Shown here one piece after another: positions 1-61,338 of a stretch of 64,000 nucleotides of DNA; the first letter of the stretch is position 1; each line of letters opens with the position of its first letter. Source of the stretch: Bolinopsis microptera (lineage: Eukaryota > Ctenophora > Tentaculata > Lobata > Bolinopsidae); contig NC_087083.1 of assembly GCF_026151205.1 (NCBI RefSeq), forward strand, positions 1,793,501-1,857,500. The letters run 5' to 3'. A program made the translations under genes and the position numbers. A model generated the notes under the pieces. The model worked only from the letters and a program-made list of their open reading frames with translations. It was not told the origin of the DNA and did not search any database.

Positions 1-825
1 TGTTGGGTCTTCTGTGTGATGAGCGATTGAGTCTATGATTTCAAGGAGTGGGTGATTCGTGGGAATATCAAGTGGTTTGTGTACTGTTCTGCCAAAAAAT
101 GCTGTCTGTCGATGCCCTATCTTAGTAAAATGTACTCCGTGGCAAACTGTCTCCAGGTCTAAATGGTCAAAGTTTATATCACACGGTTCAACAGCACCTG
201 GTATAGTTGGTAACGTCACCGTGTTGAGCTGTGCTAGTGCTGGTGGTGGCGGTGGGGTTGATGGAGGAGTTCTTCTAGAGTTGGCGGCGCTTTCATAAGC
301 TAACATGTCCGTGATACACTGTTTCGCTGCCGCTATCGACTCTGTTAGTTGTTCAATAATCCTCGCATGATGGCTTTCTGCTTCTTGAAGTTTCTCGGAA
401 ATGAGGGAGGTTACGGAAGTGAACTGATGCAAATTTTTAGAAATATCATCTACATTGCTAGTTAGGTGTTGCTCTAGGTGTTGCTTTAAATGTTCATAGG
501 CATGTGCCTTTCTATCCCTAGTTAGCATCCCTACTCCTATTGTATGATCTGTAAAACCACAGATTGTTGAATGGTATTCCGATTCATGTTTAAGTTGTTC
601 TTCTGTCAGGGTTGAGAAGAGCTCTAAACTTGTTTTAGGAGATAATAGTGCCGTCCTAAAAGTTTTATCGTACGTACCGTCTTGTTGTGGGGGTACCAGG
701 CAGGTCTTTGAAGAGGTAGTGAGTGGGTCACTACCTGGTAGCCCCTTGTCATCTGATGAAGGATTCGTCTCGTGAGATGGGTGGGTGGTTGGCTGATCCA
801 ATAAGTTGAGCGCGGCGTCGACCAT
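1..825 (-). CDS. 5' part of a probable mobile-element ORF (runs off window edge)
   Basis: An uninterrupted frame of 275 codons starts at ATG 825 (context ttaccATGG) and is still open at base 1, so the C-terminus lies outside the window. In order it shows a polar Ser/Thr/Pro-rich N-terminus (about residues 1-65), a helical probably coiled-coil part (about 75-180, motif SEKLQEAESHHARIIEQL), a proline-rich linker (about 190-205, TPPSTPPPPPAL), then a folded-looking part with HGVHFTKIGHRQTAFFG. That last part faintly resembles the N-terminal edge of AlkB-type 2-oxoglutarate/Fe(II) oxygenases, but the His/Asp metal-binding motif would lie beyond the edge. The ATG is 70 bases inside a module at 895-1010 that acts as a long terminal inverted repeat elsewhere in the window, so I infer a transposon gene. 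The function is unknown; the AlkB idea is weak. Confidence 0.75.
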   Translation of the reverse strand, partial: MVDAALNLLDQPTTHPSHETNPSSDDKGLPGSDPLTTSSKTCLVPPQQDGTYDKTFRTALLSPKTSLELFSTLTEEQLKHESEYHSTICGFTDHTIGVGMLTRDRKAHAYEHLKQHLEQHLTSNVDDISKNLHQFTSVTSLISEKLQEAESHHARIIEQLTESIAAAKQCITDMLAYESAANSRRTPPSTPPPPPALAQLNTVTLPTIPGAVEPCDINFDHLDLETVCHGVHFTKIGHRQTAFFGRTVHKPLDIPTNHPLLEIIDSIAHHTEDPT

Positions 826-878
826 GGTAAATTTTCTTATCAGCAAACGAATTTCATGCGTAATGTAAAAGACAAATA

Positions 879-894
879 TGATATATATATATAT
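879..894 (-). promoter_or_regulatory. TATA-like alternating AT run upstream of the 825 ORF
   Basis: An alternating TA run ends 54 bases upstream of ATG 825 on the minus strand. It is the only TATA-like element close to that start, but it could equally be a simple dinucleotide repeat. Confidence 0.3.
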
Positions 895-1010
895 CGGTAT
901 CAATTTGCATTAGCGGACTGTTCCTCAAATTAATATCATTTCCTTTAGTTTGGAAAAGAGAGACACTGGCAGCGGTACACTCTACCCATGATTATGGGTT
1001 TTGGTCAAAT
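895..1010 (+). mobile_element. R1 terminal module (right end of TIR element)
   Basis: The module runs from cggtatcaatttgcat to ccatgattatgggttttggt. It recurs at 59000-59130 and 61226-61338 in the same orientation, and inverted at 57922-58030 and 60838-61005. At 60838/61338 and 57922/59130 two copies face each other as inverted termini, so this single copy reads as the right end of an element extending left past base 1. Confidence 0.6.
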
Positions 1011-2030
1011 ATCATCTCTTTTTGATTATAATGTCAGAATAATTTACACAGCTAGTCGAAACTTCATTAACAAGGAGGTAATTTCGACGATTTCGAAATT
1101 CTGCCTTTGAAAACGTGTCCTTGTGTTTAGTTAGGTATATCTGTCGATAACCGACTGAATATGGCACTTTTTACTCATTCAAGTTGGCATTAAATTCATA
1201 GATAATGCCATTTAGATATCGTGGGAAGCAGAATATGTTCGAAATCACGAATGAGCAAAATTCTCACCTTTCGCACGTGCAAACTTTGAGCGGACGTTGC
1301 GTGCGCATACAATATTGAATCACCGTAAATTTTTGCATAGTGGTATTTAATATATAGTTTGATAAGCATGCAATGTTTCAGAAGATTTCAAAAAGAACTT
1401 GGATCACAACGGGACTCCAAAGTTGATAAAAATCGTGAAAATCAAAATTTTTAGTGATTTTAGCTATTTTAAATCAATTTGGGCGTGTCCCCACGTGTGC
1501 AACTTTTCGATTTTTAACTTTAAAACTAGCCTATAACACAATTTACACCTTTAAGAAGCAAAATTGAGCTCCACAACCCAAGGGATAGCCCAACACCAGA
1601 GAATACTAATTCACAACTTTTGTGTTTTTATAAAATTATTCTTCAAAAAAGCACTAACTTCAATAGCAAATATCTTTATGAAGGAGTAAGGTAGGAAACT
1701 TTTCCGGTAGATTTTTAGAATGCTTGAACAATTATCTAAGGTGAAAATGTCATCAGATTTTGAATAAAATTACTCTTTAATGGTGTAAAATCGATTTGAA
1801 AAGTTGTTGTTTTGTCAAAAATCAAGTTTTAAAAACACTTAAATTGATGACGTCATCAAGTGATGATGATGATGATAAATTATTTTTCAATATAAAGTAA
1901 AGTAAAGTATAAACGATTATCTTTAAAACCTGAGGTTCAAAATGACTGTATCTTTTATACTTTTGAATATACGGACACTTAAATGTAGGCTACAATTGAC
2001 TGCAAAAAGCGTCTATACATATTATTATAT
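1010..2030 (+). repeat. R2 dispersed repeat, copy 1
   Basis: About 1 kb of non-coding sequence shared with 61343-62380, including agattt/ccggtagatttt stretches and the tract gggcgtgtccccacgtgtgc. A fragment of R2 also lies inverted at about 58320-58543. Stops occur in all frames. It also carries a gatgatgatgatgataa microsatellite near 1861. Confidence 0.7.
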
Positions 2031-2033
2031 ATC

Positions 2034-2858
2034 TTCACGACAATCTGTTGTAAAACAGGGGTTCCAGAAAACCCACTTCCCGATACTCCTGAAACATGAA
2101 ATTTTTTTAACTGTCGACTTGGAGAAGGTCTAGACGCCCTGCAAAGTTTCAGATCTCTAACTCAATTTTAACATGGTTTTTAAGGCACCTGAATATGGCG
2201 ATTTTGGGTTTTTTACCTAATTTCGTATAACATGCTGGCGCGTATTTTGCGCAAATTTCTTAAAAACCTCCATATAACTATTTCTTATTCCTGTCATCTT
2301 TAACATTGAATTAGAATGTTTTGAACTTAAATGTACCTGCTGAACTACTTTCGAAAAAGTCTTAATGCCTGGAAAACAATAAAGGGGATATAATAGTATA
2401 GGGGGTAAATAGTATTGTGAATATAAGGGCGACGGTAATGCTTGCCAGCATTGTGATACTTCACGACAATCTGTTGTAAAACAGGGGTTCCAGAAAACCC
2501 ATTTCCCGATACTCCTGAAACATGACATTTTTTTACAGTCGATTTGGACAAGGTCTAGACGCCCTGCAAAGTTTCAGATCTCTAACTCAATTTTAACATG
2601 GTTTTTAAGGCACCTGAATATGGCGATTTTGGGTTTTTTACCTAATTTCGTATAACATGCTGGCGCGTATTTTGCGCAAATTTCTTAAAAACCTCCACAT
2701 CACTATTTCTTAGTCCTGTCATCTTTAACATTGAATTAGAATGTTTTGAACTTAAATATACCTGCTGAACTACTTTCGATGAGTCTTAATGCCTGGAAAA
2801 CAATAAAGGGGATATAATAGTATAGGGGGTAAATAGTGTTGTGAATATAAGGGCAACG
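2034..2858. repeat. Tandem duplication, two copies of ~426 bp
   Basis: Copy one starts at 2034 and copy two at 2460; both begin ttcacgacaatctgttgtaa and run through cctggaaaacaataaagggg. Divergence is a few substitutions. Small open frames here read straight through the repeat and are not gene-like. Confidence 0.85.
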
Positions 2859-2859
2859 T

Positions 2860-3150
2860 TTTAAAGTTTAACGAAAGTGACACAAGAATTGAAGCTTATG
2901 ATAATCCTATAAATTTAATTCGATAATTGATTAATTAATTATCTATGCCTATTGTTTTGCTAGTTAAAAATAGGACAAGTAGAGCGAAATACCAAACAAA
3001 AAGTCGAATGCAAAAAGAGCATGATATATAAGTTAACTGGCTTTTATCGCGATCATTATGAAATTAAAAACCTGTTATGTGATACCCTAAAAGAATCATA
3101 ATTACAAAACCATTAAAAAAAATTTAAATAAAAATTTAAAATTTTTTTAA
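2860..3150. other. AT-rich spacer
   Basis: Very AT-rich, with taattaatta and long A/T runs; no gene seen. It leads into the satellite. Confidence 0.4.
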
Positions 3151-6100
3151 TTACTATTGATAAATAACTGGACTCACCAAAAAACGACAATAAAAACTAA
3201 TATACCAGCAGCTTAATCATATCCAAACTGAATACGTTGCCATTTTTTTTTCTTTTTCTTTACTTCTGTTTTATGTTAAATTTTATTCTTAAGCAAATAA
3301 AATGAGCAACAATTTTTCAGTGATTGGTGTATTCGTATTAGCAAATGAATATGAATAACACACAATTAATAAACAATTGATAAAAAACAGACATAAAAAA
3401 CTACATATAGCAGCTTTTTGAGTTTTCCATATCCCAAAAAGAATACGTTGTCAACGACAATTTTTTTCTCATTGTTTTTATTTATTTCTGATTTTTGTTT
3501 AAGTTTTATTCTTATGCAAACATTTAACAGCTGAATATGATAAAATTAACAACATGACATAATGAATAAAATAAATTGATAAAACAACTGACTACAAAAC
3601 GGAACATAAAAAACTTATAGAAAGCAGCTTAATCATATCCAAAAACTGAATACGTTGGCCATTTTTTTTTCTTTTTACCTTTATTCTGATTTTTTTGTTT
3701 TAAATTTTATTCTTAAGCAAAAAAATTGCAGCAACAATTTTAACAGCTGAATAGTGTATACGTATTAGCAACATGGAATATGAATAAACACACAATTAAT
3801 TAAACAAATTGACTAACAAAAACGAAAATAAAAACTAAATATAGCTGCTTTTGATTATCATATCCCAAAAATGAATACGTTGTCAACGACAATTTTTTCT
3901 CAATTTTATTTATTCTGATTTTTGTTTAAATTTTATTCTTAGCAAAACATTTAACAGCTGAATATTATTATAAACATTAACAACATGATATTGAATTAAT
4001 ACAATTGATAAAACAACTGACTAACAATAACGGAAACATAATAAACTAATATACAGCAGCTTAATCATATCCCAAATGAATACGTTGCCATTTTTTTTCT
4101 TTTTCTTGTATTCTGTTTGTTGTTAAATTTTTTTCTTAAGCAAATAAAATGAGCTAAATTTAAACTGTGAATAGTGTATACGTATTGCAACATGAATATG
4201 GAAAACACACAATTAATAAAAACAATTGACTAACAAAACGAACATAATAACTAACATATAGAAGCTTTATTGATTTATCATAGCTCCATAACTGAATTCG
4301 TTGTCATCGACAATTTTTTTCTCATTTGCATTTATTCTGATTTTTTTGTTAAATTTATTCTTAAGCAAACATTTAACAGCTGAATATTATATAAACAGTT
4401 ACAACATGAATATTGAAATACATTACAATTGATAAAAAACTGAACTATCAAAACGCCGACATAAAAAATTAATTTACAGCAGCATTAATCTTATCCCAAA
4501 ACTGGAATTACGTTTGCCATTATTTTTCTTTTTCTTTATCTGATTTTGTTAAATTTTATTCTTAAGCAAAATAAAATGAGCAACAATTTACAGCTGAATA
4601 GTGTTAAGTATTAGCAACATGAATATTGAATAAACACACAATTAATATAACAATGCCTAACAAAACGAACATAAAAACTACATTTTTCAGCTTTTATGAT
4701 TTATCATATCCCAAAAACTGAATACGTTTCAGTCAACTGACAATTTTTTGCTCATTTTATTTATTCTGATTTTTGTAAATTTTATTCTTAAGCAAACATT
4801 TAAACAGCAGAATTTATATAAACATTAAACAACTTGAATATTGATAAAATACATGATAAAACAAAATGACTAACCAAAACGGAACATAAAACTAAATATA
4901 CAGCAAGCTTAATCATATCAAAACTGAATACGTTGCCATTTTTTTTTCTTTGTTTTATTCTTGATTTTTTGTTAAATTTTATTCTTAAGCAAATAAAATG
5001 AGCAACAATTTAACAGCTGAGAATTGTGTATAAGTATTTGCAACATGAATATTGGAATAACACACAATTAATAAAATTTGACTAACAAAACGAAACATAA
5101 AACTAAACATTATAGCGTTTATGATTTAACATATCCCAAAACTGTTTTACGTTGTCATCGACATTTTTTTCTCATTTTATTTATTCTGATTTTTTTGTTA
5201 AATTTTATTCTTAAGCAAACATTTAACCAGCTCTGAATATTATATAAACATTAACTAACATGAATATTGAAATTAAATACAAATTGATATTAAAAAACTA
5301 CTGGACTAACAAAACGAACATAATTAACTAATATACTGCAGCTTAATCTATCCCAAAACTGAATACGTTGCCATTTTTTTTTCTTTTTCTTTATTCTGAT
5401 TTTCTTGTTAAATTGTATTATTAAGCAAATAAATGAGCAACAATTTAACGCATGAAAGTGTATACGATTAGCATCATGGTGAATATTGAATAACCACAAT
5501 TAATTAAAACAATTGACTAAACAAATCGAACATAAAAATAACAATAGCAGCTTTATGATTTATCATATCCCAAAACTGAATACGTTGTCAACGACAATTT
5601 TTTTCTCATGTTATTTATTCTGATTTTTTGTAAATTTTATTCTTATGCAAAACATTTTAACAGTGAATATTATAAAACATTAACAACTTGAATTCAGGAA
5701 TAAAAATTCGATTGATACAACAACTGACATAACAAAAAGGACATAAAAACTAATATCAGCAGCTGAATTTGTTTTTCATATCCCAAAAACTGATTACGTT
5801 TCCTTTTTTTTTCTTTTTCTTTATTCTGATTTTTTGTTAAATTTTATTCTTAAGCAAAATAAATGAGCAACATTTTAAACAGCTGGTATAGTGTATACGT
5901 ATTAGGTCATCATGAATATTGAATAAACACACAATTAATTAAAAAACAATTGGATAAACAAAAACGAACATCATAAACAAACTAACATTTAGCAGCTTTA
6001 TGATTTTATCATATCCAAAAATGAATTCGTTGTCAACGACAATTTTTTTCTCTTTTTTTTATTCTGATTTTTTGTTAATTTTTTTGTAAGCAAACATTTA

Positions 6101-9100
6101 ACAGCTGAATATTATATAAACATTAAAACATGAATATGAGAATAAAAATTCAATTGATAAAAAACAGACTAATCAAAACGGAAACAAAAAACTAATATAC
6201 AGCAGCTTTATCATATCCCAAAACTGATTACGTTGCCATTTTTTTTTTCTTTTTCTTTCTTCTGATTTTTTGTTAAATTTTATTCTTAAGCTAATAAAAT
6301 GAGCAACAATTTTACAGGCTGTATAGTGTATACGTATTAAGTGTGCAACATGATATTGAAAAACACACAATTAATAAAACCCCATAATTGTCTAACCAAA
6401 ACGATAAATAAAAACTAAACATATAGCAGCTTTTGATTTATCATATCCCAAAAACTGGAATACGTTGTCAACGACAATTTTTTTCTCATTTTAATTTTAT
6501 GTCTGTTTTTTGTTAAATTTTATTTCTTAAGCAAACTTTTAAAGCTGAATATTATATAAACATTAAAACATGACTTTTGAATAAAATACAATGATAAAAC
6601 AATGACTATCAAATCCGGAACATAAAAACTAATATACTGCAGCTTAATCATTATCCCAAATGAATACGTTGCAATTTTTTTTTCTTTTTTCCTTTATTCT
6701 GATTTTTTGTTTAAATTTTATTTAAGCAAATTCATATGAGCATCTAATTTAACAGCTGAATAGTGTATAGGAATTAGCAACTTGAATTTGAATATACACA
6801 CATTAATAAAAACAAATGTCTAACAAAACGAACATAAAATCTAAATTTTTTATTGAAGCTTTTTGATTTATCATATCCCAAAACTGGAATTCGTTGTATT
6901 TCAACGAACACTTTTTTCTCATTTTATTATATTCTGATTTTTTGTTAAAATTTTATTCTTAAGCAAACATTTAACAGCTGAATATTATTTAAACAATACA
7001 CATGAAATTGAATTAAATACATTTGATAATACCAACTGACTAACAAAACGGAACATATTAAATTATATACAGCAGCTTAATCCAGATCCCAATTCTGAAT
7101 ACGTTGCCATTTTTTTTTCTTTTTCTTTATTTGATTTTTTGTTAAATTTTATTGTCTAAGCAAATAAATGAGAACAATTTAAACATGAATAGTGTATACG
7201 TATAGCACATGAATATTGAATAACAACACAATTTAATAAAACATTTGACTAACAATAACGAACATAAAATCTAACATATAGCAGCTTATGATTTATCATA
7301 TCCCAAACTGTATACGTTGTCAACGAAATTTTTTTATTTTATTATTCTGATTTTTTTATTGTTAAATTTTATTTCTTAAGCAAACATTTAACAGCTGAAT
7401 ATTATAATAAACATTAAAACAACAAGAATATGAATATAATACAATTGATAATAAACAACTGACTAACTAAACGGAAACATAAAAAAACTATATATACAGC
7501 AGATTAATTCATATCCCAAAACTGAATACGTTGCCATTTTTTTTTCTTTTTCTTTATCCTGTTTTTTTGTTAATTTTTATTTCTTAAGCAATATTAATAT
7601 GAGCAACAATTTAACAGATGAATAGTGTATAGTATTAGCACCATGAATATTGAATAACACACAATTAATATAAAACAATTGACTAACAAGAAAGAACATT
7701 AAAACTAACATATAGCAGCTTATGATTTATCATATCCCAAACTGTATACTTTGGCAAGACACTTTTTTCACATTTTATTTATTCTGATTTTTGTTAAATT
7801 TTATTCTTATTGCAAACATTAACAGCTGAATTTATATAAACATTAAAAACATGAATATTGAATAAAATACAAATGAATAAAACAACTGAACTATAACAAA
7901 ACGGACATAATAAAAACTAATATACTGCAGCTTATCTTAACCCTAAAAACTGATTACGTTGCCATTTTTTTTTCTTTTTCTTATCTGATTTTGTTGTTTA
8001 AAAATTTTATTCTTAAAGCAAATAAATGTGCAACAATTTAACGCTGAATAGTGTATACGTATTATTAGCAAACATGATATTGAATAACACACATTAATAG
8101 AACAATTGACTAACAAAACGAACATATCAAAACTACATTATAGAAGCTTTATGATTTATCATATCCCAAAATGAATACGGTGTCAAACGACAATTTTTTT
8201 CTACTTTTTATTATTTGATTTTTTGTTAATATTTTATTCTTAAGCAAACATTTTACAGCTGAATATTATTTAATCATTAACAACATGAATATTGAATAAA
8301 ATACAATTGATAAAACAAAACTGACTAACAAAACGGAAAATAAAAACTAATATTCAGCAGCTTAATCATATCCCAAACTGAATACGTTGCTTTTTTTTTT
8401 ACTTTGTCTTTATTCTGATTTTTTGTTTTAATTTTATCTTAAGCAATATAAATTGAGCAACAAGTTAACAGCTGAATAGTGTATTCGTTATTAGCAACAT
8501 GAATATGAATAAACACACAATTAATAACAACAATTTGGTATAACAAAACGAACATAAAAAACTAACATATATAGCAGCTTTATGATTTAGTTACCCAAAA
8601 ACTGGAATACGTTGTCTACGGACTCAATTTTTTCTCATTTTATTTATTCTGATTTTTTGTTTAAATTTTTTTTTAAGCAAACATTTAACAGCTGAATATT
8701 ATATAAACATTAACAACAAGATATTGAATAAAAATACAATTGATAAAAACATACTGACTAACAAAACGGAACTTTAAAAAAACTAATATTCAGAGCTTAT
8801 TCATATAACCAAAACTGAATACGTTGCCTATTTTTTTTTTCTTTTTCTTTATTATTTGTTTTTTTGTTAAATTTTATTCTTTAAGCAAATAAAAATGAGC
8901 AACAATTTAACAGCTGATTAGTGTATACGTATTAGCACAGGAATATTGAATTAACACACAATTATTTAAAAAATTGACTAACAAAATCGAACATAAAAAA
9001 ACTTAACACTATACAGCTTATGTTTTATCATATCCCAAATCTGAATACGTTGTCACGACATTTTTTTTCTCTTTTTATTTTTCGGATTTTTTTTGTTAAA

Positions 9101-12100
9101 TTTTATTCTTAAGCAAACATTTAACAGTCATATTTTTTTAAACATTAACACATGAATATTGAATTAAAATACAATTGATATAAAACAATCGACTAACAAA
9201 ACGGAACATTAAAAACTAATATACGCAGCTTAATAATATCCCAAAACTGAATACGTTGTGCATTTTTTTTTCTTTTTCTTTATTCTGATTTTTTGTTAAA
9301 TTTTTTCTTAAGCAATTAAAATGACAAAATCTTAACAGTGAATAAGTGTATACGTATTGCAACATGAATATTGAATAAACACTATTAATAAAACAATTGA
9401 CTAACAAAACGAACATAAAAGTAACATTATAGCAGCTTATGTTTTTATCATATCCTCAAAACCTGAATACGTTGTCAACGACAAATTTTTTTCTCATTTT
9501 TATTTATTCTGATTTTTGTGTAAATTTTATTCTTAAGCAAAACATTTAAAAGCTGAAATATTATGAAAACATTAACATACTGGAATATTGAATAAAATTC
9601 AATTGATAAAAAAAACTTATAACAAAACGGAACATAAAAAAACTAATATACAGCAGCGTAATCATATCCCATAACTGAATCGTTGCCATTTTTTTTTCTT
9701 TTCTTTATTCTGATTTTTTTTGTTAAATTTTATTCTTAAGCAAATTAAAAAATGAGCAACAATTTAACAGCTGAATAGTGTGTATACGTATTAGGCATCA
9801 TGAATATTGAATAAACACAATAATAAAAAAATATGACTAACAAAAAGAACATAGAACACTAACATATAGCAGCTTTATGAATTATATATCCCAAAACTGA
9901 ATACGTTGTCAACGAAAAATTTTTTTCTATATTTTATTTATTCTGATTTTTTGTAAATTTATTCTTAAGAACATTAACAGTGAATATCTATATAAACTTT
10001 AACAACATGTATATTGAATAAAATACAATTGATAAAAACAACTGACTAACAAATCGGAAAACATAAATACTAAATATACAGCAGCTTAAATTCATATCCC
10101 TAAAACTGAATACGTTTGTCCTTTTTTTTTCTTTTTTTCTTTATTATGATTTTTGTTAAATTTTATTCTTATGACATATAAAATGAGCAACAATTTAACA
10201 GCTGATTAGTGTATACGTATTTTTAGCAACATGAATATTGAATAACTCACAATTAATAAACAAAATGACTAACCAAAAACGAATAAAAATCTAAAAATAT
10301 TAGCAGCTTTATGATTTTCATATCCAAAACTGGAATCGTTGTCAACGACAATTGTTTTTCTCATTTTTATTTATTCTGATTTTTTGTTAAATTTTTATTC
10401 TTATTGCAACAGTTTTAACAGCCTGAATATTATATTAAACATTAAAAATCTTGAATATTGAATAAAATACAATTGATTAAAAACAACTGACTAACAAAAC
10501 GGAAATAAAACTAATATACAGCAGCTTAATTCATATCCCAAAACTGAATACGTTGCCATTTTTTTTCTTTTTCTTTATTCTGATAAAGATTTTTTTTGTT
10601 AAATTTTATTCTTAAGCAAATTAAATGTGCAATCATTTAACAGTGAATAGTTGTATTCGTATTAGCTACAATGAATATTGAATATCACACAATTAATAAA
10701 ACAATTGACTAACAAAAAACGAACATAAAAACTAACTTATAGCAGCTTTATGGATTTACTACATATCCAAAACTGAATTCGTTGTCAACGACAATTTTTT
10801 TCTCATTTATTTTATTCTGATTTTTGGTTAAATTTTATCTTAAGCAAACATTTAACAGCTGAATATTATATAAACATTAACATCATGAATATTGAATAAA
10901 TCAATTGATAAAACAACTGACTAACAAAACGGAACATAAAAACTAATATCAGCAGGCTTAATCATATCCCCAAAACTGAATACGTTTGCCATTTTTTTTT
11001 TCTTTTTCTTATTCTGATTTTTTTGTTAAATTTTATTCTTAAGCAAATAAAATGAGCAACAATTTTAACAGTGAATAGTGTTATACGTATTAGCAAAATG
11101 AAATTGAATAAATCACACAATTAATATAAACTATTGAACTTACAAAAGAACATAAAAACTAAATATAGCAGCTTTTTGATTTATCATATCACAATTCTGA
11201 ATACGTTGTCAGCGGACAATTTTTTTCTCATTTTTTTATTCTGATTTTTTGTTACAATTTTATTCTTAAGCAAACATTTAACAGCCTGTATATTTATATA
11301 AACATTAACAACATGGTTATTGATAAATACAATGATTAAAACAACTGACTAACAAAACGGAACATTAAAAATAATATACAGCTGCTTAATCATATCATAT
11401 CTGATAGCGTTGCCATTTTTTTTTCTTTTCTTTATTCTGATTTTTTGTTAAATTTTATTCTTAAGCAAATATTAATGAGCAACATTTAACAGTGAATGTG
11501 TTCTACGTATTAGCAACATGATTTTTGAATAACTCACATTTGATAAAACAATTGACTAACAAACGAACTAAATAACTAACATTTTGCAGATTTATGATTT
11601 ATTCAATCCCATAACTGAATTACGTTGTCAAACGACCAATTTTTTTCTCATTTTATTTATTCGATTTTTTGTTAATTTTTTATTCTTAAGCAAAATTTAA
11701 CAGCTGTCTTTTATATAAACATTTAACAACATGAAAATGTGATAAATACAATTGAAAAACAACTGACTAACAAAACGGAACATAAAAACTAATGACAGCA
11801 GCTTAATCATATCCAAAAACTGAATACGTTGCCTTTTGTTTTTTTTTCTTCTTTCTTTTTCTGATTTTTTGTTAAATTTTATTCTTAAGCAATGAAGATT
11901 ACTGTACAAATGAGCAACAATTTAACAGCTGATAGTGTATACGTATAGCAACATGAATATTGAATAAACTCACATTAATAAAAACAACTTGACTAACAAA
12001 AAACGAACATAAAAAAACTAACATATAGCTGCTTTATGGATTTATCATAATCCCAAAAATGAATACGTTGTCAACGACATATTTTTTTCTCTATTTATTT

Positions 12101-37596: not shown

Positions 37597-40255
37597 TCAT
37601 GGCCGATTGATATTGTTCATTTCATACTCTGCTGTTTGGTCAGATGGATTAACTCTTTTGTTAATTCTATTAACAATAGCACTAATAATATATGAACCTT
37701 TATGCTTGACAATTTTATACATGTCACTGTAAAATATTGGGTTAAGCAAACTGTTGATGGGCATCACAAACAGGGCGAAAACTTCAAATACATATTCTGG
37801 TACAGAACTTCCGTCAGCACCGATGAAATAGTTAGCGGTTATTATTAGGGACACCCAGCTTACCAGTTGAGATCCGATCATCAAGCAAACCTTGATCAGG
37901 AGGTCTTTGTTTTGCTGATTATCTCCCTGGTTGTCGTTTGCAATTGCTGCTGACTTGTTATGCTTCACCACTATCAAAATATATGATACTGAAACTACAG
38001 CTAACAGCACAGATATGGCAGTACAATATCCAATTTTAAAAGCTCGGTAAGATTCCTGATCCTTGAATATATTGCTTATGCAAATTGGCGTGGTCCCGTA
38101 ATACCCAATCATTCTGAAGTCGAAGATCTCAGGCATATTTGTTATTTGCTTCAAATCATCCAGCATCGTTGTAATGTACTCAGTAGTCTGGTTTGGAAAG
38201 AATTTGTTATGCAGATCTGTTATGTTCTGTTCATCAAAGGAGCTCAACAAGGGATTTTCGGCAATGTTCACCATGAAGATTTTCGATTTGAAGATGTGTT
38301 CAATTAGGGGAAGCTTTACAACTGGAAGTATTGCATGAATCAAGTTGAGGGTGAAAATGATGCAGGAACTTAAAATTATGGCTTTATAAGGAATCCTGAT
38401 AAATGATACAGTGCACTGGATGCTCCTTACAATACTCATCAAAGAAACTATCAAGAGAGATCCGTGACTTGCAAAAGAGAAGATCACCCCCAAAATATTG
38501 CAGTAAACGCTCGACCTCCACCAGTCAGAGCGTACACAATAGCCTCCAGTATATCGGAGAACGAGGGATGCCAGCACGATGAAGCAAAGATAAATTCCCA
38601 TCATAAAGTCATATGCAAATATTTGTATGCAAAGAAGTCTATCAGTTTTCGCAATAACATTAGTGGCTGTGCGTTTCATTGCTTTATAACCGTTCCTTAA
38701 ATTCAGAATCAAAACAGCTAATCCAAAGATGAGATTTAAACACGAGAGAGCATTCGATTTTATGAGGGATTTTGGAGAAGCTATGTTGCCTAGGTCACAG
38801 TCAATATTACACTCATCCATATTATTTGGACAATCTTTAACTTGATCGCATTTCTTATCCAGTGAAACCGACATTGCCCTTTCGCTTGTGGACACATTTT
38901 CAAGGTGGTTATAGCAGTAGAATCTGCCCGGACATCCAACTTCATCTTCACCATTTGTACAGTCTATTTCATTGTCACAAATTGACAACAGACTGGGCTT
39001 TTTATCGGCATCAAGGCTTTGACAAAAATGTAGTGCAGGAGTTTTAAAAACATTGTTTAAGCCTAGGAGCTTGCAAAACTTATACCATTGATCTGATTTT
39101 GAAAAATAACTGCTGCAATTATTTTCACAGAACATTATTAACTGCTCATGCTGGTTAAACCATATTCTATTTTCAGAACGACTGTAATCGATTATGCATT
39201 GCGCAACTGGATTTTCCCTTTTTAACCTATTCTGGTGTCTCTGATCGTTGTTTGGACAGAAACTCTCGTCACTACCGTCTAAACAGTCTTCTTTGTTATC
39301 GCAAATCTGAGGTGGGAGGTGCAGTCATATTCATAAAACAAACAGGAATATGTTCATTATTATTAGAAACGTGCGATAAACAAGTGGGGAGTTAATAATC
39401 TGTCGATGATCGCTTAAATTTAAGAGTTGTTTAAATGTAAATTATCAGTGACTGTTGACCCTTCGATCGCTTACACACAAAACTAAAGGGTTGCTTAAGG
39501 ATTCTTAAGCATGCTAAATGCACGAAATTATATAAGGGCCGATTATGGATTGACTACAATGAGACACAATAAGCTGCCCAATCTATGACCAAGTAATCTA
39601 CCGACGAACGGAAGTTAGGGGCGACAAGGTTTGTTATTAAATTTGGTTAATTTTCGAACTTTGTTGACAGTGACAAATTTAAACGCCGTAGTATTATATA
39701 GGAATGTTGCCATTAGTGATCATTCGCACTGTTGTATTGATAAAGAAAAATATTTTCTTATGTTTTCGTTACCTGTGGAAATGGGACACATCCAGGCTGT
39801 TGAGCACAGTAGAAGACCGGAGTCTGGGTTACTGACTGCTCAGTTAGGCAACTAGAGAAACCATCACAGACGTAATATACAGGAATCAAACAAGTCCAAT
39901 TTGTTGTGTCCAATACTGGATATTTGTGTATCGACATGGGGCAAGCATGAATGTCTTCAGGTGATAGAAGTAATGTGTCCATATTCTTCATTATGTTGTT
40001 ATAAAATGGTCTATTGTATGTCAATGAGGTTTCATTGACATTCTGATGAAGGAAATAGTCAACATCATCTCTGCACGTTCCTCTCGGAAAATCTGCAAGT
40101 CCTATCGAGTAAAGAGGTGGACTTTTGTACACTTCCGCGGTTATTATTACCTTTTCTTTAGACAAGGGTTCTCGTGGGTCATTGGAGCCGAGGACGAGGT
40201 CAAGGATGAAAACTTGAATTAATATTCCTATTATTAAATGGCTCCTTCTTGTCAT
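37597..40255 (-). CDS. LDLa-containing LGR-like G protein-coupled receptor, copy A (complete, 730 aa)
   Basis: Two exons: 40255-39773 and 39306-37597, joined in phase 0 (CCACAG/gtaacg ... cctcag/ATTTGC). I chose ATG 40255 because MTRRSHLIIGILIQVFILDL is a signal peptide; the open frame to 40312 begins with TTG. The ectodomain has LDL-receptor class A modules: a degenerate one at exon 1's end, then CDNKEDCLDGSDESFC across the intron, then CDNEIDCTNGEDEVGC (about 255-287) and CDQVKDCPNNMDEC (about 291-327). Seven TM segments follow from about residue 346. TM2 YDFMMGIYL and TM7 PINSLLNPIFYS match the signature of glycoprotein-hormone/relaxin-type (LGR) class A receptors. The usual DRY is SIVR. 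No leucine-rich repeats are seen, so it is LDLa-7TM without LRR. Likely a plasma-membrane peptide or protein receptor; the ligand is unknown. Copy A lacks 10 residues of LDLa present in copy B. Confidence 0.88.
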
Positions 40256-40360
40256 GACACTAATTTTCAAGGACTGCCAGAAAATTCGGTATGCACGAGT
40301 GCAGCTGTCCAACGTTCAAAGAAAGAGGAAGAAAACTCGACTGCCCTATATCTAAGATAG

Positions 40361-41946: not shown

Positions 41947-43999
41947 TCAATCATTAAACAAATTAATATCGTCTTGAGCGTTATTTATGATTGCTGATCG
42001 CAGTATGAATCGGGCAGAATTATATTTCACGATAATATCGTAAAAATCAATTTTATAACTTAAAGTTGAAGTAGCAACCAGTCTTAAAATTATGGCTTTA
42101 TAAGGAATCCTGATAAATGATACAGTGCACTGGATGCTCCTTACAATACTCATCAAAGAAACTATCAAGAGAGATCCGTGACTTGCAAAAGAGAAGATCA
42201 CCCCCAAAATATCGCAGTAAACGCTCGACCTCCACCAGTCAGAGCGTACACAATAGCCTCCAGTATATCGGAGAACGAGGGATGCCAGCACGATGAAGCA
42301 AAGATAAATTCCCATCATAAAGTCATATGCAAATATTTGTATGCAAAGAAGTCTATCAGTTTTCGCAATAACATTAGTGGCTGTGCGTTTCATTGCTTTA
42401 TAACCGTTCCTTAAATTCAGAATCAAAACAGCTAATCCAAAGATGAGATTTAAACACGAGAGAGCATTCGATTTTATGAGGGATTTTGGAGAAGCTATGT
42501 TGCCTAGGTCACAGTCAATATTACACTCATCCATATTATTTGGACAATCTTTAACTTGATCGCATTTCTTATCCAGTGAAACCGACATTGCCCTTTCGCT
42601 TGTGGACACATTTTCAAGGTGGTTATAGCAGTAGAATCTGCCCGGACATCCAACTTCATCTTCACCATTTGTACAGTCTATTTCATTGTCACAAATTGAC
42701 AACAGACTGGGCTTTTTATCGGCATCAAGGCTTTGACAAAAATGTAGTGCAGGAGTTTTAAAAATATTGTTTAAGCCTAGGAGCTTGCAAAACTTATACC
42801 ATTGATCTGATTTTGAAAAATAACTGCTGCAATTATTTTCACAGAACATTATTAACTGCTCATGCTGGTTAAACCATATTCTATTTTCAGAACGACTGTA
42901 ATCGATTATGCATTGCGCAACTGGATTTTCCCTTTTTAACCTATTCTGGTGTCTCTGATCGTTGTTTGGACAGAAACTCTCGTCACTACCGTCTAAACAG
43001 TCTTCTTTGTTATCGCAAATCTGAGGTGGGAGGTGCAGTCATATTCATAAAACAAACAGGAATATGTTCATTATTATTAGAAACGTGCGATAAACAAGTG
43101 GGGAGTTAATAATCTGTCGATGATCGCTTAAATTTAAGAGTTGTTTAAATGTAAATTATCAGTGACTGTTGACCCTTCGATCGCTTACACACAAAACTAA
43201 AGGGTTGCTTAAGGATTCTTAAGCATGCTAAATGCACGAAATTATATAAGGGCCGATTATGGATTGACTACAATGAGACACAATAAGCTGCCCAATCTAT
43301 GACCAAGTAATCTACCGACGAACGGAAGTTAGGGGCGACAAGGTTTGTCATTAAATTTGGTTAATTTTCGAACTTTGTTGACAGTGACAAATTTAAACGC
43401 CGTAGTATTATATAGGAATGTTGCCATTAGTGATCATTCGCACTGTTGTATTGATAAAGAAAAACATTTTCTTATTTTTTCGTTACCTGTGGAAATGAGA
43501 CACATCCAGGCTGTTGAGCACAGTAGAAAACCGGAGTCTGGGTTACTGACTGCTCGGTAGTCTCCCCTCCGCAACCACACTCGTCAGTTAGGCAACTAGA
43601 GAAACCATCACAGACGTAATATACAGGGATCAAACAAGTCCAATTTGTTGTGTCCAATACTGGATATTTGTGTATCGACATGGGGCAAGCATGAATGTCT
43701 TCAGGTGATAGAAGTAATGTGTCCATATTCTTCATTATGTTGTTATAAAATGGTCTATTGTATGTCAATGAGGTTTCATTGACATTCCGATGAAGGAAAT
43801 AGTCAACATCATCTCTGCACGTTCCTCTCGGATAATCTGCAAGTCCTATCGAGTAAAGAGGTGGACTTTTGTACACTTCCGTGGTTATTATTACCTTTTC
43901 TTTAGACAAGGGTTCTCGTGGGTCATTGGAGCCGAGGACGAGGTCAAGGATGAAAACTTGAATTAATATTCCTATTATTAAATGGCTCCTTCTTGTCAT
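41947..43999 (-). pseudogene. LDLa LGR-like receptor, copy B (truncated after TM3, 528 aa)
   Basis: Exons 43999-43487 and 43020-41947. Identical to copy A apart from a few substitutions (e.g. DF/DYPRG, HQ/HRN, NNV/NNI, YCN/YCD) and 30 extra bases at about 43558-43588. Those bases encode the stretch with DECGCGG that completes the first LDLa. Homology stops at residue ~482 (KAIIL) at base 42083; the frame then reads 46 residues of foldback-element DNA and stops. TM4 to TM7 are missing, so it cannot be a working 7TM receptor. It retains the signal peptide, all LDLa modules and TM1-TM3, so it could at most make a membrane-anchored or dominant decoy product. Called a pseudogene from structure only. 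Confidence 0.85.
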
Positions 44000-45730
44000 G
44001 ACACTAATTTTCAAGGACTGCCAGAAAATTCGGTATGCACGAGTGCAGCTGTCCAACGTTCAAAGAAAGAGGAAGAAAACTCGACTGCCCTATATCTAAG
44101 ATAGTTTATTAAATACAGAATAAATACACGAATCAACGCTCGCGTTCTTGAAGATATTATTTTTAAGAAACCACTCAGCAAAATAATATAATTTGATCAA
44201 TAGCAATTATTCCATGTTTGATGCTGTATCGAAAAATAAATTTGTAAAACTAAGCACTAAGAATAAGATCCTGATCAGTAAGAGAGCGTTGATTTGTGAG
44301 AAAGCGCGATCCGCGAGCGTTGATTCGTGGATTAATAAACATTTATTCTGTATTTAATAAATTTTTATCGTGGTGTCTGCAGTTTCTGTTGCGGCTACTG
44401 CTGCAGCCTCGGGCATTGCATCATAGATTTTTAAAGAATTGATTGAGGCGATGAAAAAATGTCAAGGTATAGATAAGCGTGTTTAAGTACGCTCCCAACC
44501 GGGCAACATTTAGAGATACCGCATTTTTTCCAGCCATGCCGGTATCCAGTCTTCTCCTTTTATAGCAGAGAGGTGGAACCGTACCACAGTAGGACTCCAC
44601 ATCGCCGACATTGTAAACATTGTATTGCAATGTCAAATTTTAATTGAATATGTAAAGTTTTTTGTCGCACTTTAGGTCGTGTCGCACTACAGTACAGGTA
44701 TCGTACTGTAGTGCGACAGTGTCGAACTTGAAGGTTTTGCACTAGGGTACGTGTCGCACTACAGTACGGAAACCAGGGGACCAGGGTGAGAAGATATTAA
44801 TTAATTAATAATATCAATAACAAGGTTGGAAATGTCTCGTCCGTATATAAAAGTTTGGCATTGAAATCAGATTTACCGTGGACGATCAGAGTATTATACC
44901 CATCAACGGATGGTACCCGTAATCTTACTGGGCGGCGCTCAGCCTGTCTTTCCGCCGAATCTCTATGCAATTATGAACATAAATATAATAGCCTGGGGTC
45001 CCCAGGTAACCCGTAATAAAAATGGTTAATATTTGTTTTAATTGTTCATGTTTCAGAAATTAGAACCGGCAACGAGACGCATCTCATTTTCAGCATGTTA
45101 TAAACATTTAAGTGTAAGTTCATATGCTCTGTTATGTGTTGAGTTCAGCTTTTATGGTTAAGGTTCAAGCTTGCTGGTCTCTTGCTCGCTTCTCAGCAAG
45201 AAAGACTAGCAAGCTAGGTAACTATAAACTTAAACCGTATTACTCCAAACTCTGACCATAAACAATAAAATTTGCTGTTTGCGTTTAACTGGTATTTAAC
45301 GTGTCCAAAATAGCAGTGTTTTTGTTAATCAACAATAACAAATAATGAAATAAACCATTAGGGAAGCAATTTTTTATGTCATGGAGAGATTTGGAATGAG
45401 CCGACCTTATCACGTAAATGTGGCACTGTGGCACTTGTGGCACTATATCATGTGGCACTTGCTGCACTCACATGTGGCACATGTGGCACTAACATATGTA
45501 ACATGTGGCACATGTAGTTGACCGATGATCACAATAGTAATACAATCATGTCATTCGTAATTCGTAATCGTATGTAATTATGGTTCATATATATGATAAG
45601 AACACTGATCAATTCAAGCTTAACAAGCCAAATTATGATATCAATCATTAAACAAATTAATATCGTCTTGAGCGTTATTTATGATTGCTGATCGCAGTAT
45701 GAATCGGGCAGAATTATATTTCACGATAAT
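42083..45730. repeat. Segmental tandem duplication, unit B
   Basis: Second copy of 38369-42036. The junction with unit A is agtagcaaccagt/cttaaaattatgg at 42082/42083. It contains the truncated receptor, the 257 bp inverted-repeat element, the palindrome and the 86 bp MITE. Confidence 0.9.
44924..45009. mobile_element. 86 bp MITE, copy 3 (duplicated with unit B)
   Basis: Same element and flanking cccgtaat repeats as 41230-41315; it moved by segmental duplication, not by a new insertion. Confidence 0.8.
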
Positions 45731-56582: not shown

Positions 56583-58174
56583 CGTACAGGGTTAGAAACA
56601 TAACATGATGATTAAATGGCTTGATTTCGTGACTAACAAGACCACTCAGTTAGATAACAGTTTTTATAAATAAGTATGGCAGTTAATTGTCGTCATAAAA
56701 CCAATATTTGGTCCATGACTGTTGTTTTGCTCAACATGAATCACTCGAAAAACTTATTCAACTATTAAGATCGAAAGTTATACTCTTATTCACTCGACAA
56801 TCACGTGACTTATACTTTAACACGTTCTCTGAGTGTTTCTTAGTGACTATTCAAAACCTTATCAGCTTATCCCTCTAATCTGACTCCAGCCCTAACCCTA
56901 GCCATTAAGCAAGATGCTTCATCTTACTGTATGTCTGCTTTAAACGAAATTAGAGTTATAGGAGTATATCTGAGGACAAGACATTGCTGAGATGATTACT
57001 ACCAACAAGGGTCATCTTTAAGTATGAAGCTGTGTTAGTTAACTGTTCTTAGATTTAAAAAATTGTAAATAAAGAAAGTTGAAGTAAGTCGAGTTTAGTT
57101 TATTATGAATCTTCGGCCGTATTAAACAAGCGTGCCTTCCATTTTAAAGTAGTGAGACATAAAAAGACTTGAATAATTTTTTCCTTTTCCCCCTTTTGAA
57201 AAAAGGCAATAGTGAAAGGTTACGGATGGAGGTTTTTGCAGAAAAACGTGGATTTTGGAGAACGAGATAGGTGGGTTTAAATATGTCGTGTGTCCTTCCT
57301 TCCTTACGTCCGTTACCATGCAACGAAAAAGTTGCGCGCGCGCGAGGATTGCTTGCGGAGATGTGATGTATAGATAGCCTGTGATCTATGAATGCGCGGC
57401 GCGACTGTGTTTTAATGTATATGATGCATGTAATGTATAATATTACTATTAGGTAATACGCCCAATTTGTTCGTGGCACGCGTAGTGTATTGATGTGTAC
57501 ACGAGTATAGTTTAGTTTTACCTTTGCTGATAATTTCTTGAATTACAGATACAAGTTAAGTTCTACGGCAATTGAACTGAATTTCAAGTGTTTGCCGTAT
57601 TTGATGCATAATTTATCAATATTATTATCAGATCATAAAAATTGAAATGAGCTGATTGGAGCTTATACTTAAATTTATAGTAAATGTGAAATGGAAATCT
57701 AGCGTCCGCCAAAACGAAACAACGGGCGCAATTCTTGTTATAAACTGAAATTGATCTGATCAATAATTTTGTTAACTCACTTTCAGGCTCCGTAGAAATC
57801 TGCCAAGGCTTTTCTGAAAATACATTCGTTACCTTTATGAAGGAGCACTAGCAACTGTTGCTCTGTACAGCGCATCTTTTAACGATACTTTCATTGCCTT
57901 ATCAACTTTCCGAGAAAGCAACAAGTTTCTGTTTCCCAAACAAAAGGAAATGATATCAATTGGAATAACCGTTCTCAAATACAAAATGATACCGTTAATG
58001 AATCGGTCGCTCGCTTTTCCCATTTATTCACGGCTTACGAATTTTAATCAGTTTAATTTTAGGTTTATTACATCGATGGCACTTTCTGGAAACCCCTTAG
58101 GCATAGGGTTTGTTTTCAAGCCAATACCTAGTACTTTGGGATAAACTAGACGTTAATAACTAGTTAGTGTCCAA

Positions 58175-58318
58175 TTAGCTGAGGTTTATCGAATCTTTAT
58201 TTCCGAGTACTGCTTCTGGGTAGTGTTGCTTGATTAATCGCAATTGTAGATGAAAGGTATGTCCGGTCTTGGTGAGGAGGTTGCGGAGAGTAGTTGCTGA
58301 TGAGTGGGTGACAAAATC
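58175..58318 (-). pseudogene. C-terminal coding relic of the R1 element ORF
   Basis: 48 codons in one frame ending in TAA: begins DFVTHSSATTLRNLLTKTGH and ends HYPEAVLGNKDSINLS. The last 17 codons are conserved at 61115-61168 (NYPKAAVLGNKDSINFS-stop) in another deleted copy. Protein-level conservation in two independent copies argues this is the real C-terminus of the element's protein, probably the same ORF that begins at 825. Confidence 0.6.
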
Positions 58319-58543
58319 TACCGGAAAGGTTTCCTACCTTGCTCCTTTATAAAAATATTCGCTATTGAAGCTAGTTCTTTTGGAAGAATAATTTTATAAA
58401 AACACAAAAGTTGTGATTTAGTATTTTCTGGTGTTGGGCCATACCTTGGGTTTTGGAGCTCAATTTTGCTTCCTGAAGGTCTAAATTGTGTAACACTAAC
58501 AGGCTAGTTTCGGAGTTGAGAATCAAAAAGTTGCACATGTGAG

Positions 58544-58925
58544 GCGCTCCTACTAAATCGCTCGCCCAAATTTTAAGAAAATTTTTGTGAAATAGGGCCC
58601 TTTGGGTGTGAAATTGATCTAAATCGGTGTATTTTTGGACGCTGATTCCGAATCACCCCACATGACGTAGGATAAAAATGCTTTCACGGATCGAGAGTTA
58701 TGGGCAAAAAACCGTTTTGGTCACGTGACAGGCTAGTAAACCATGAATTCGATTGTTTAGGGCTCGGGTTAGGGTTAGGGTTGTGGTAAGGGTTATGGTT
58801 AGCTTCGGGGTTACGGTTAGGGTTAGGGTTGGGATTAGGGTTTATGTAAAACCGTTTTGTACGGCTGCAAAACCATAAAAACCAAAGTCACGTGAAATTT
58901 TTGGGCGAGCGAATTAGTAAAAGCC
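58544..58925. mobile_element. 382 bp MITE carrying telomere-like repeats
   Basis: Flanked by catgtgag at 58536-58543 and 58926-58933. Ends are inverted: gcgctcctactaaatcgctc gccc versus gggcgagcgaattagtaaaagcc. Inside lie a stretch shared inverted with 54030-54130 and, at 58760-58845, imperfect ttaggg repeats. Undisturbed R2 copies (e.g. 1480-1507) show the empty site. Confidence 0.7.
58760..58845 (+). repeat. Interstitial telomere-like (TTAGGG) tract
   Basis: gggttagggttagggttgtg then diverged units and gttagggttagggttgggat. Minor ccctaaccctaa pieces also occur near 53992 and 56890. Confidence 0.8.
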
Positions 58926-59156
58926 CATGTGAGGACACGCCCAAATATTTTTAATCCATTACAATTGCAAATGAATGGGAAAAGCGAGCGACCGATTTCA
59001 TTCTCGGTATAATTAATTTGCATTTGCGAACGGTAATTATTCGAATTAATATCATTTCTTTTTGCTTGGGAGAGAGAGACACTGCATGTTGCGGTCCACT
59101 CTACCCATGATTATGGGTTTTGGTCAAATAAATACTGACAAATTTATATATCCTAC

Positions 59157-60837: not shown

Positions 60838-61338
60838 ACCAAAACCCATAATCATGGGTTGAGTGGACCGCTGCCAGTGTCTCTCTTTCCCAAACAAAAG
60901 GAAATGATATTAATTTGATTGACCGTTCTCAAATGCAAAATGATACCGAGAATGAAATCGGTCGCTCGCTTTTCCCATTCATTCACGGCTTACGAATTGT
61001 AATAAGTTTCGATTGATTAGGTACATCAATCAGATGCTGTAAAAATCTCTTTGGGTTGCGTTCGGGTCGATACCTAGTATTTCGGGGTAAGGGTGGTAGT
61101 TATTACTTATTGAATTAGCTGAAGTTTATTGAATCTTTATTGCCGAGTACAGCTGCCTTTGGGTAGTTCTTTTTAATCTATTACAATTGTAAATGAATGG
61201 GAAAAGCGAGCGACCGATTTCATTCTCGGTATCATTTTGCATTTGAGAACGGTCAATCAAATTAATATCATTTCCTTTTGTTTGGGAAAGAGAGACACTG
61301 GCAGCGGTCCACTCTACCCATGATTATGGGTTTTGGTA
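60838..61338. mobile_element. R1 TIR element, short derivative with ~165 bp inverted ends
   Basis: 60838-61005 and 61175-61338 are near-perfect inverted copies (gaccaaaacccataatcatg outward, cgctcgcttttcccattcat inward). The ~170 bp centre includes the C-terminal codons of the element ORF (61115-61168, minus). It begins ~50 bases upstream of the Ly6 start codon. Confidence 0.8.

What the first reader, a model, noticed from the sequence alone, without database searches (positions are those of the whole stretch)
1..1010. Large edge ORF coupled to a TIR module: candidate undescribed mobile element
The frame 825-1 is open for 275 codons, starts in a good context and sits 70 bases inside a module that forms long inverted ends in two other elements of this window (57922-59130, 60838-61338). 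In those, the C-terminal codons of an ORF lie on the same strand relative to the same ends. So the window start is probably the right half of an autonomous element with ~165 bp TIRs and a protein with coiled coil, proline-rich linker and a domain around GHRQTAFFG. It has no transposase motif I know; an AlkB-like oxygenase is a weak suggestion.
Basis: partly seen in the sequence, partly recalled or inferred. Interest (0 to 1): 0.78.

Follow-up and report, generated by a model that had tools for sequence, protein, structure and literature searches.

The report
Jumping genes carrying an AlkB enzyme
The open frame at the window's edge is the first gene of a copy-and-paste jumping gene (a LINE) that landed inside a small unrelated transposon; its protein joins an AlkB-type demethylase to an esterase, and the same enzyme pair occurs in other LINEs and in a Helitron of this genome, which hints that such elements clean methyl groups off their own RNA or DNA.

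Summary
The 275-codon edge ORF is real; its full length is about 600 aa. It is not half of a TIR transposon but ORF1 of a two-ORF LINE of about 6.6 kb (ORF2 = PHD, endonuclease, reverse transcriptase). Nine copies (97-99% alike) share their 5' end but not their flanks. Of these only the window copy has "TIRs": it landed inside a TIR element like the one at 60838-61338. The window copy is dead (7 residues missing in ORF1, a 1.3-kb insertion in ORF2).

In this genome (by its figures the ctenophore Bolinopsis microptera) the pair recurs in four RT groups and in a Helitron-type polyprotein. AlkB dN/dS is 0.04-0.20 in 6 of 12 pairs; the others are saturated or have at most five changes. My searches of an open-access library found no AlkB in a LINE or Helitron; the nearest is an orchid Gypsy element.

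Most likely role (inferred): removing m1A/m3C-type methyl groups from the element's own RNA or single-stranded DNA. Main rival: erasing host marks.

The parts
1..825 (-). 5' part of LINE ORF1 (first 275 of 598 codons of this copy): N-terminal region, proline-rich linker, start of the AlkB domain (about 1-213). The rest lies left of the window (G000:C12, L007:6933-8726).
85..93 (-). Junction of a 7-residue in-frame loss, including the YxY motif of AlkB, relative to the sister copies; the window copy is damaged here
   Evidence: the place is read
826..883 (-). LINE 5' leader, up to the point where the match to most sister copies begins; very short
894..1011 (.). Arm of the TIR (MITE-like) element into which the LINE inserted; the other arm lies left of the window at L007:685-802
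60838..61338 (.). Uninterrupted relative of that TIR element (501 bp, 149-bp terminal repeats at 98.7%): serves as the empty site; the break corresponds to its positions 387/389
57922..59130 (.). Longer relative of the same TIR family; no LINE ORF in it

Best explanation
The window edge holds the 5' end of a non-LTR retrotransposon (LINE) nested in a TIR (MITE-like) element. Its ORF1 protein combines a helical N-terminus, an ALKBH2/3-type AlkB dioxygenase and an SGNH esterase; ORF2 supplies PHD, endonuclease and RT and presumably moves the element by target-primed reverse transcription. The most likely role of the AlkB domain (inferred) is in cis: ORF1p binds the element's RNA and removes methyl groups such as m1A and m3C that would stop reverse transcription, while the esterase takes part in membrane association as proposed for ZfL2-1. 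In the Helitron the same pair would act on single-stranded DNA or mRNA. Shown: architecture, copies, nesting, conserved catalytic residues, purifying selection in one LINE group and in the Helitron, recurrence in four RT groups. Inferred: substrate and role.
For: Nine copies with one 5' end and different flanks; 7 of 8 printed 3' ends have a TAC-rich tail; 0 of 8 sisters have the TIR element. RVT_1 2.8e-37 and Exo_endo_phos 1.7e-11 in ORF2, PF13532 9e-17 to 2e-20 in ORF1 of three families. AlkB profile nearest ALKBH3 (3e-24) and ALKBH2 (5e-23); model nearest ALKBH2/ALKBH3. SGNH profile hits ZfL2-1 ORF1p 4c1b (9.7e-8). AlkB H, D, H, R, R and SGNH S, G, N, H residues invariant in 11 ORF1 rows. 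AlkB dN/dS 0.04-0.20 in 6 of 12 pairs. 59 of 150 listed AlkB places have a downstream RT, control mean 0.34. SGNH, AlkB and Helitron_like_N in one frame. m1A and m3C block common RTs and bacterial AlkB removes them (PMC12140624, passages).
Against: No activity was tested. The substrate is guessed from ALKBH2/3 likeness (23-26% identity to ALKBH2 in the fold search). A Helitron has no reverse transcription step, so template cleaning for RT does not explain its copy of the module. The window copy itself is damaged. dN/dS within the window's own family is not low (L009/L015 0.45 on 5 changes; L009/L014 no change) and four wider pairs are saturated. No target-site duplication was recognised.
Confidence: 0.6

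Rival explanations
1. Counter-silencing: the AlkB domain erases marks or lesions that the host puts on element DNA or RNA (for example 3mC as a by-product of DNA methyltransferases, 6mA in DNA, or m6A/m1A in mRNA), so that elements with unlike transposition mechanisms profit alike.
For: It explains why LINEs and a Helitron share the module. An orchid Gypsy AlkB is an m6A RNA demethylase in vitro (PMC9289625, passages). ALKBH2 is listed beside DNMTs and TET as part of the DNA methylation toolkit in krill (PMC11294593, passages).
Against: The domain is ALKBH2/3-like by sequence, and the m6A eraser ALKBH5 comes only at rank 46 in the fold search. In human cells m6A helps L1, and ALKBH5 suppresses it (PMC7873242, passages). 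No methylation data for this genome were seen.
Confidence: 0.25
2. Non-catalytic use: the AlkB fold is only a nucleic-acid-binding part of ORF1p, in place of the RRM or zinc knuckles of other ORF1 types.
For: Pfam reported no RRM or CCHC knuckle in the six full-length element ORF1s scanned; esterase-type ORF1s are reported to lack RRMs (PMC3905857, passages).
Against: The Fe(II) and 2OG ligands (HxD, H, R, R) are invariant across 11 divergent rows and kept in the Helitron and group C rows.
Confidence: 0.1
3. One reading: right half of an autonomous transposon with long TIRs encoding this protein.
For: The ORF does lie between two 118-bp inverted repeats at 99%.
Against: 0 of 8 sister copies have the repeats and their flanks differ; an uninterrupted relative of the TIR element without the ORF lies in the window; the same gene is followed by PHD-EN-RT.
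Confidence: 0.01

Closest known systems
CR1/L2-type LINEs with esterase ORF1 (ORF1 type IV; zebrafish ZfL2-1, PDB 4c1b)
   Same: Two ORFs, APE endonuclease and RT in ORF2, SGNH esterase in ORF1; the SGNH profile hits 4c1b at 9.7e-8
   Different: An AlkB dioxygenase stands before the esterase; the ORF1 survey PMC4120745 has no occurrence of AlkB and found esterase ORF1 only in two vertebrate subgroups (passages)
Orchid Ty3/Gypsy elements with an AlkB ORF (PMC9289625)
   Same: A retrotransposon that captured an AlkB-type 2OG dioxygenase (passages)
   Different: LTR element of a plant, separate extra ORF, m6A demethylase; here LINE ORF1 and a Helitron, ALKBH2/3-like, fused to SGNH
Bdelloid rotifer LTR and other retroelements sharing GDSL or DEDDy ORFs (PMC5408684)
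   Same: One accessory enzyme ORF shared by elements of unlike type (passages)
   Different: No AlkB; sharing was among retroelements, not with a Helitron
Helitrons (Rep-Pif1 helicase rolling-circle transposons)
   Same: Helitron_like_N 3.2e-22 (L025) and 1.6e-23 (L034), PIF1 1.3e-25 (L034)
   Different: N-terminal SGNH and AlkB domains in the same frame as Rep; element ends not determined
AlkB domains of plant RNA viruses and giant viruses
   Same: Replicators that carry an AlkB domain; matches in the viral structure library
   Different: Viral replicase or stand-alone contexts; no relative found in IMG/VR with two single-protein queries

Membership tests
Non-LTR retrotransposon (LINE, APE type) | Reverse transcriptase and APE-type endonuclease in ORF2 | tested here: met
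   RVT_1 2.8e-37 and Exo_endo_phos 1.7e-11 in L009 ORF2
Non-LTR retrotransposon (LINE, APE type) | No terminal repeats; simple 3' tail | tested here: met
   No inverted end repeats in the sister copies (L009 shows only a palindromic stretch in its flank); TAC-rich tail in 7 of 8 printed ends
Non-LTR retrotransposon (LINE, APE type) | Target-site duplications | tested here: inconclusive
   No convincing duplication
CR1/L2 lineage | Place in an RT tree with named reference elements | not tested
   No reference library at hand; the tree holds only elements of this genome
AlkB family, ALKBH2/3 type | Fe(II)/2OG ligands HxD, H, R and R in a double-stranded beta-helix fold | tested here: met
   Invariant in 11 rows; PF13532 over its cut-off; fold nearest ALKBH2/ALKBH3
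AlkB family, ALKBH2/3 type | Demethylase activity | not testable with these tools
   Needs the bench
SGNH/GDSL hydrolase | S, G, N and H catalytic residues in order | tested here: met
   S395, G438, N440, H534 invariant; profile hits to SGNH structures. Single sequences stay below Pfam's cut-off
Helitron | Rep (Helitron_like_N) and Pif1 helicase | tested here: met
   PF14214 in L025 and L034; PF05970 in L034 in an adjoining frame
Helitron | 5'-TC and CTRR-3' ends with hairpin, insertion between A and T | not tested
   Element ends not determined
   0 of 8 sister copies

The most novel reading that the evidence does not exclude
In this ctenophore an AlkB-SGNH two-enzyme module has become a shared accessory of transposable elements: it moved between LINE lineages and into a rolling-circle DNA transposon, and it works as a self-repair kit that strips replication-blocking methyl groups from the elements' own RNA and single-stranded DNA. 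That would be direct-reversal repair run by animal transposons for themselves.
Probability: 0.4. Interest if true: 0.87.

Novelty: new variant of a known kind. Interest (0 to 1): 0.74.

Why it matters
LINE ORF1 proteins are poorly understood, and the types described in the papers seen here bind RNA or lipids. Here a direct-repair type enzyme is built into ORF1, with its active site kept, and shared with a Helitron. That makes questions testable: do methyl lesions on RNA or ssDNA limit transposition, or do hosts use methylation against elements, and do elements answer with an enzyme? It also means that many AlkB matches in this genome are transposon parts (at least 59 of 150 listed places sit before an RT), a trap when counting host repair or demethylase genes.

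Tried and rejected
Rejected: (1) Autonomous TIR transposon. (2) The 303-aa ORF between EN and RT in L007 as part of the element: it lies in a 1,319-bp stretch absent from every copy that spans this place (7 of the 8 sisters; L013's match ends before it). (3) The edge ORF as a host ALKBH gene: likely host genes are separate loci: L020 (ALKBH2, 3.8e-60), L022 (ALKBH3-like, 1.7e-27), L021 (grouped with L022 in the tree; no structure search made) and L047 (called ALKBH8 by eye from AlkB plus methyltransferase). (4) A viral source: two scans of IMG/VR found no relative; BFVD gives general AlkB folds.

Unresolved: whether all element AlkBs come from one capture. In the 23-row tree the 20 element rows form one side of a branch with unstarred support 91/79; with ALKBH8 added one clade is neither shown nor rejected (p-AU 0.107). 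The Helitron AlkB groups with three group-D rows (83/88), but a LINE-only clade of groups A, B and D is not rejected (p-AU 0.325 and 0.203), nor is Helitron plus C (0.105), nor C plus the ALKBH3-like genes (0.25). Group C may be a separate capture nearer ALKBH3 (8.8e-15). Long branches weaken all of this.

Led nowhere: Pfam on the 275-aa stub; TSD search; pattern search with alignments; PHROGs gives only a general AlkB family.

Full report
WHAT IS AT THE WINDOW EDGE. Frame 825-1 (-) is open for 275 codons. The window is G000:C12:1793501-1857500. Extending left (L007 = C12:1785600-1795500), the ORF runs to 598 aa from that ATG. Downstream on the same strand lie ORFs of 615 aa (PHD and endonuclease by comparison with L009), 303 aa and 614 aa (RT).

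WHY IT IS NOT A TIR TRANSPOSON. The genome search lists nine places that match all 275 residues, at 97-100% identity. I fetched all nine with about 10 kb each. The other eight match L007 from nearly the same 5' point (oriented position 1107-1133), at 97.0-99.3% DNA identity over the matched pieces, and their 5' flanks differ. Eight 3' ends were printed; seven end in a TAC-rich tail, L015 does not; L013's match stops before the 3' part. None of the eight contains the TIR element (0 of 8). In L007, parts of that element lie at 691-896 and at 8795-8906; against the uninterrupted relative at window 60838-61338 the break falls between positions 387 and 389. The LINE therefore inserted into the TIR element with little loss. 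No convincing target-site duplication was seen. The 303-aa ORF sits in a 1,319-bp stretch that only L007 has among the copies spanning this place. ORF2 is one frame of 1,222 aa from its ATG in 5 copies whose coordinates I computed or listed, and an open frame of 1,231-1,233 codons in 6 of 9 (L008-L012, L014). ORF1 is uninterrupted in 7 of 9 (not in L008 and L015). The window copy also lacks 7 residues just after GHRQTAFFG, including the YxY motif. It is a dead copy.

WHAT ORF1 IS. The 275-aa stub gives no Pfam AlkB match because only the start of the domain is in the window. Full ORF1s of three families score 4e-19, 1.8e-20 and 9.4e-17 with PF13532, over its cut-off. A profile of ten AlkB domains matches human ALKBH3 (3e-24) and ALKBH2 (5e-23), with E. 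coli AlkB at 1.3e-9. An AlphaFold2 model of L016 ORF1 (578 aa, 11 rows; mean pLDDT 68.9, ten-residue means of 82-96 from residue about 191 to 360) has ALKBH2 and ALKBH3 chains as its first 24 PDB matches, TM 0.63-0.76 by target length. The N-terminus is predicted helical at low confidence; no coiled-coil program was run. C-terminal to AlkB is an SGNH domain: weak with single sequences of this group (0.03-0.05), clear as a profile (2hsj 9.3e-11; 4c1b, the ORF1 protein of ZfL2-1, 9.7e-8). In 11 ORF1 rows (two of them 98% alike) the AlkB residues H281, D283, H337, R349 and R355 and the SGNH residues S395, G438, N440 and H534 (L016 numbering) are invariant; that these are the catalytic ones is inferred from the families.

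HOW FAR THE MODULE EXTENDS. A PF13532 search of the genome reported 151 matches; of 587 first-look candidates only 150 were scored, so this is a lower bound. I entered the 150 places that I copied from the list. Four that I read look like host genes (L020, L021, L022, L047). Of the 150, 59 have an RT downstream on the same strand within 6.5 kb, using 207 RT places from four RT queries (groups A 8, A4 12, B 25, C 14), at median distances of 1.1-3.1 kb; fifty shifts of the coordinates by 0.1-5 Mb give a mean of 0.34 and a maximum of 3. Three neighbours lay on the other strand or upstream. Architectures read: group A (L007-L019, L029) AlkB-SGNH ORF1, then PHD-EN-RT where ORF2 is present; group B (L023, L028, L030) AlkB-SGNH ORF1, then EN-RT; group D (L031, L032, L033 with RT; ORF1 or parts alone at L037, L038, L040-L046) with a PHD-like stretch before AlkB-SGNH in ORF1 where that part was covered, and PHD-like-EN-RT in ORF2; group C (L027, L035) AlkB-long linker-SGNH, then EN and RT. 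In L024, L025 and L026 the order is SGNH-proline-rich linker-AlkB, with Rep behind it in L024 and L025 (frames of 3,388 and 2,459 aa; L026 is interrupted after AlkB, 1,012 aa). L034 has AlkB then Rep; L036 and L048 show AlkB in the same setting, without reaching Rep; L039 is a broken piece. L025: GDSL 1.2e-6 (below cut-off), AlkB 5.8e-22 and Helitron_like_N 3.2e-22 in one frame; L034: AlkB 1.1e-17, Helitron_like_N 1.6e-23, and PIF1 1.3e-25 in an adjoining frame. RT groups A, B, C and D share 25-43% identity between groups.

SELECTION. I ran 12 pairs (Nei-Gojobori). AlkB dN/dS is 0.04 for L027/L035 (dS 0.90), 0.04 for L016/L018 (7 changes), and 0.20, 0.15, 0.16 and 0.14 for four overlapping Helitron pairs; in the latter the stretches before and after give 0.40-0.93, some at high dS. 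In L027/L035 the neighbours give 0.19 and 0.22. Against this, L009/L015 gives 0.45 on 5 changes, L009/L014 has no change, and four wider pairs (L016/L009, L031/L033, L019/L029, L028/L030) are saturated. So the domain is kept by selection in group C and the Helitron; for the window's own family the test has no power, and the invariant residues carry the argument.

HISTORY. In the 23-row AlkB tree the domains of LINE groups A, B, D and the Helitron lie apart from host ALKBH2, the ALKBH3-like genes and LINE C (99/97). With ALKBH8 added, it falls on the element side (91/85), and the 18 element rows without C are joined at 86/84. The Helitron joins L037, L041 and L044 of group D (83/88). One capture for all elements is neither shown nor rejected (p-AU 0.107), nor is a Helitron outside the LINEs (0.325, 0.203). 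The simplest reading, capture of an ALKBH2/3-type gene by a LINE, spread with LINE diversification, and transfer from a D-type LINE to a Helitron, is inference.

HOST. 264.65 Mb in all and a contig C1 of 26,206,493 bases agree with Bolinopsis microptera (265 Mb, 13 chromosomes, largest 26.2 Mb; table in PMC11797021, passages). The scaffold count differs (232 here, 346 there). No gene was used to test this.

MECHANISM. Shown: genes, architecture, recent dispersal, conserved active-site residues, selection as above. Inferred: m1A, m3C and related methyls hinder common reverse transcriptases, and bacterial AlkB removes m1A and m3C (PMC12140624, passages); an ALKBH2/3-type domain in the protein expected to coat the LINE RNA would clear the template, and in the Helitron it could serve ssDNA or mRNA. 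The esterase would act in membrane targeting as proposed for ZfL2-1 (PMC3905857, passages). Rival: erasure of host marks, with the orchid Gypsy AlkB (PMC9289625, passages) as precedent and the human L1/ALKBH5 result (PMC7873242, passages) as caution.

NOVELTY. Searches of the open-access library: 'AlkB + non-LTR retrotransposon' (15 papers), 'retrotransposon + AlkB + ORF1 + esterase' (0), 'AlkB + LINE + retrotransposon + ORF1 + dioxygenase' (5), '2OG-Fe + reverse transcriptase + transposable element + AlkB-like' (0), 'ctenophore + AlkB' (3), 'Helitron + AlkB' (15), '2OG-FeII_Oxy + RVT_1' (0). Of the papers listed there I looked into four, passages only (PMC9289625, PMC7873242, PMC11294593, PMC12140624); the others I saw as listings and judged by title. 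The ORF1 survey PMC4120745 and the GDSL paper PMC5408684 contain no occurrence of 'AlkB'. Repbase, preprints and most subscription papers were not searched, so an entry may exist.

Noticed in passing
window 1012-2000 and 61344-62343; L007:1-655 and 9247-9901: The flank of the nested TIR element is itself repeated: 84% identity to the flank of the 60838 element, and a 655-bp direct repeat (95.7%) on both sides of the insertion, 9,246 bp apart. The TIR element seems to lie inside a larger repeat unit.
   Followed up: partly
L007:3174-4492 (G000:C12:1788773-1790091): 1,319-bp insertion in ORF2 of the window copy with an open 303-aa ORF whose text looks like a LINE ORF1 of another kind (Pfam only weak Toprim, 0.0008).
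   Followed up: partly
L022:1087-1953 and 2704-3438: An ALKBH3-like ORF has an SGNH-like ORF about 750 bp downstream on the same strand. They look like separate genes, but it may be a relic of the module or its source.
   Followed up: partly
window 37597-39135, 39758-40312, 41947-42849, 43472-44056 (-): Tandem duplicate of a receptor-like gene (LDL-receptor-type repeats followed by several hydrophobic segments, by eye); the second copy is cut short.
   Followed up: no
window 48427-49201: Long tandem array of a short AT-rich unit, open in three frames on the + strand.
   Followed up: no
L031, L032, L033, L037: Group D LINEs have a PHD-like cysteine/histidine stretch in ORF1 and, in those with ORF2, another before the endonuclease (weak Pfam PHD 0.0071 in L032 ORF1, the rest by eye).
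   Followed up: no
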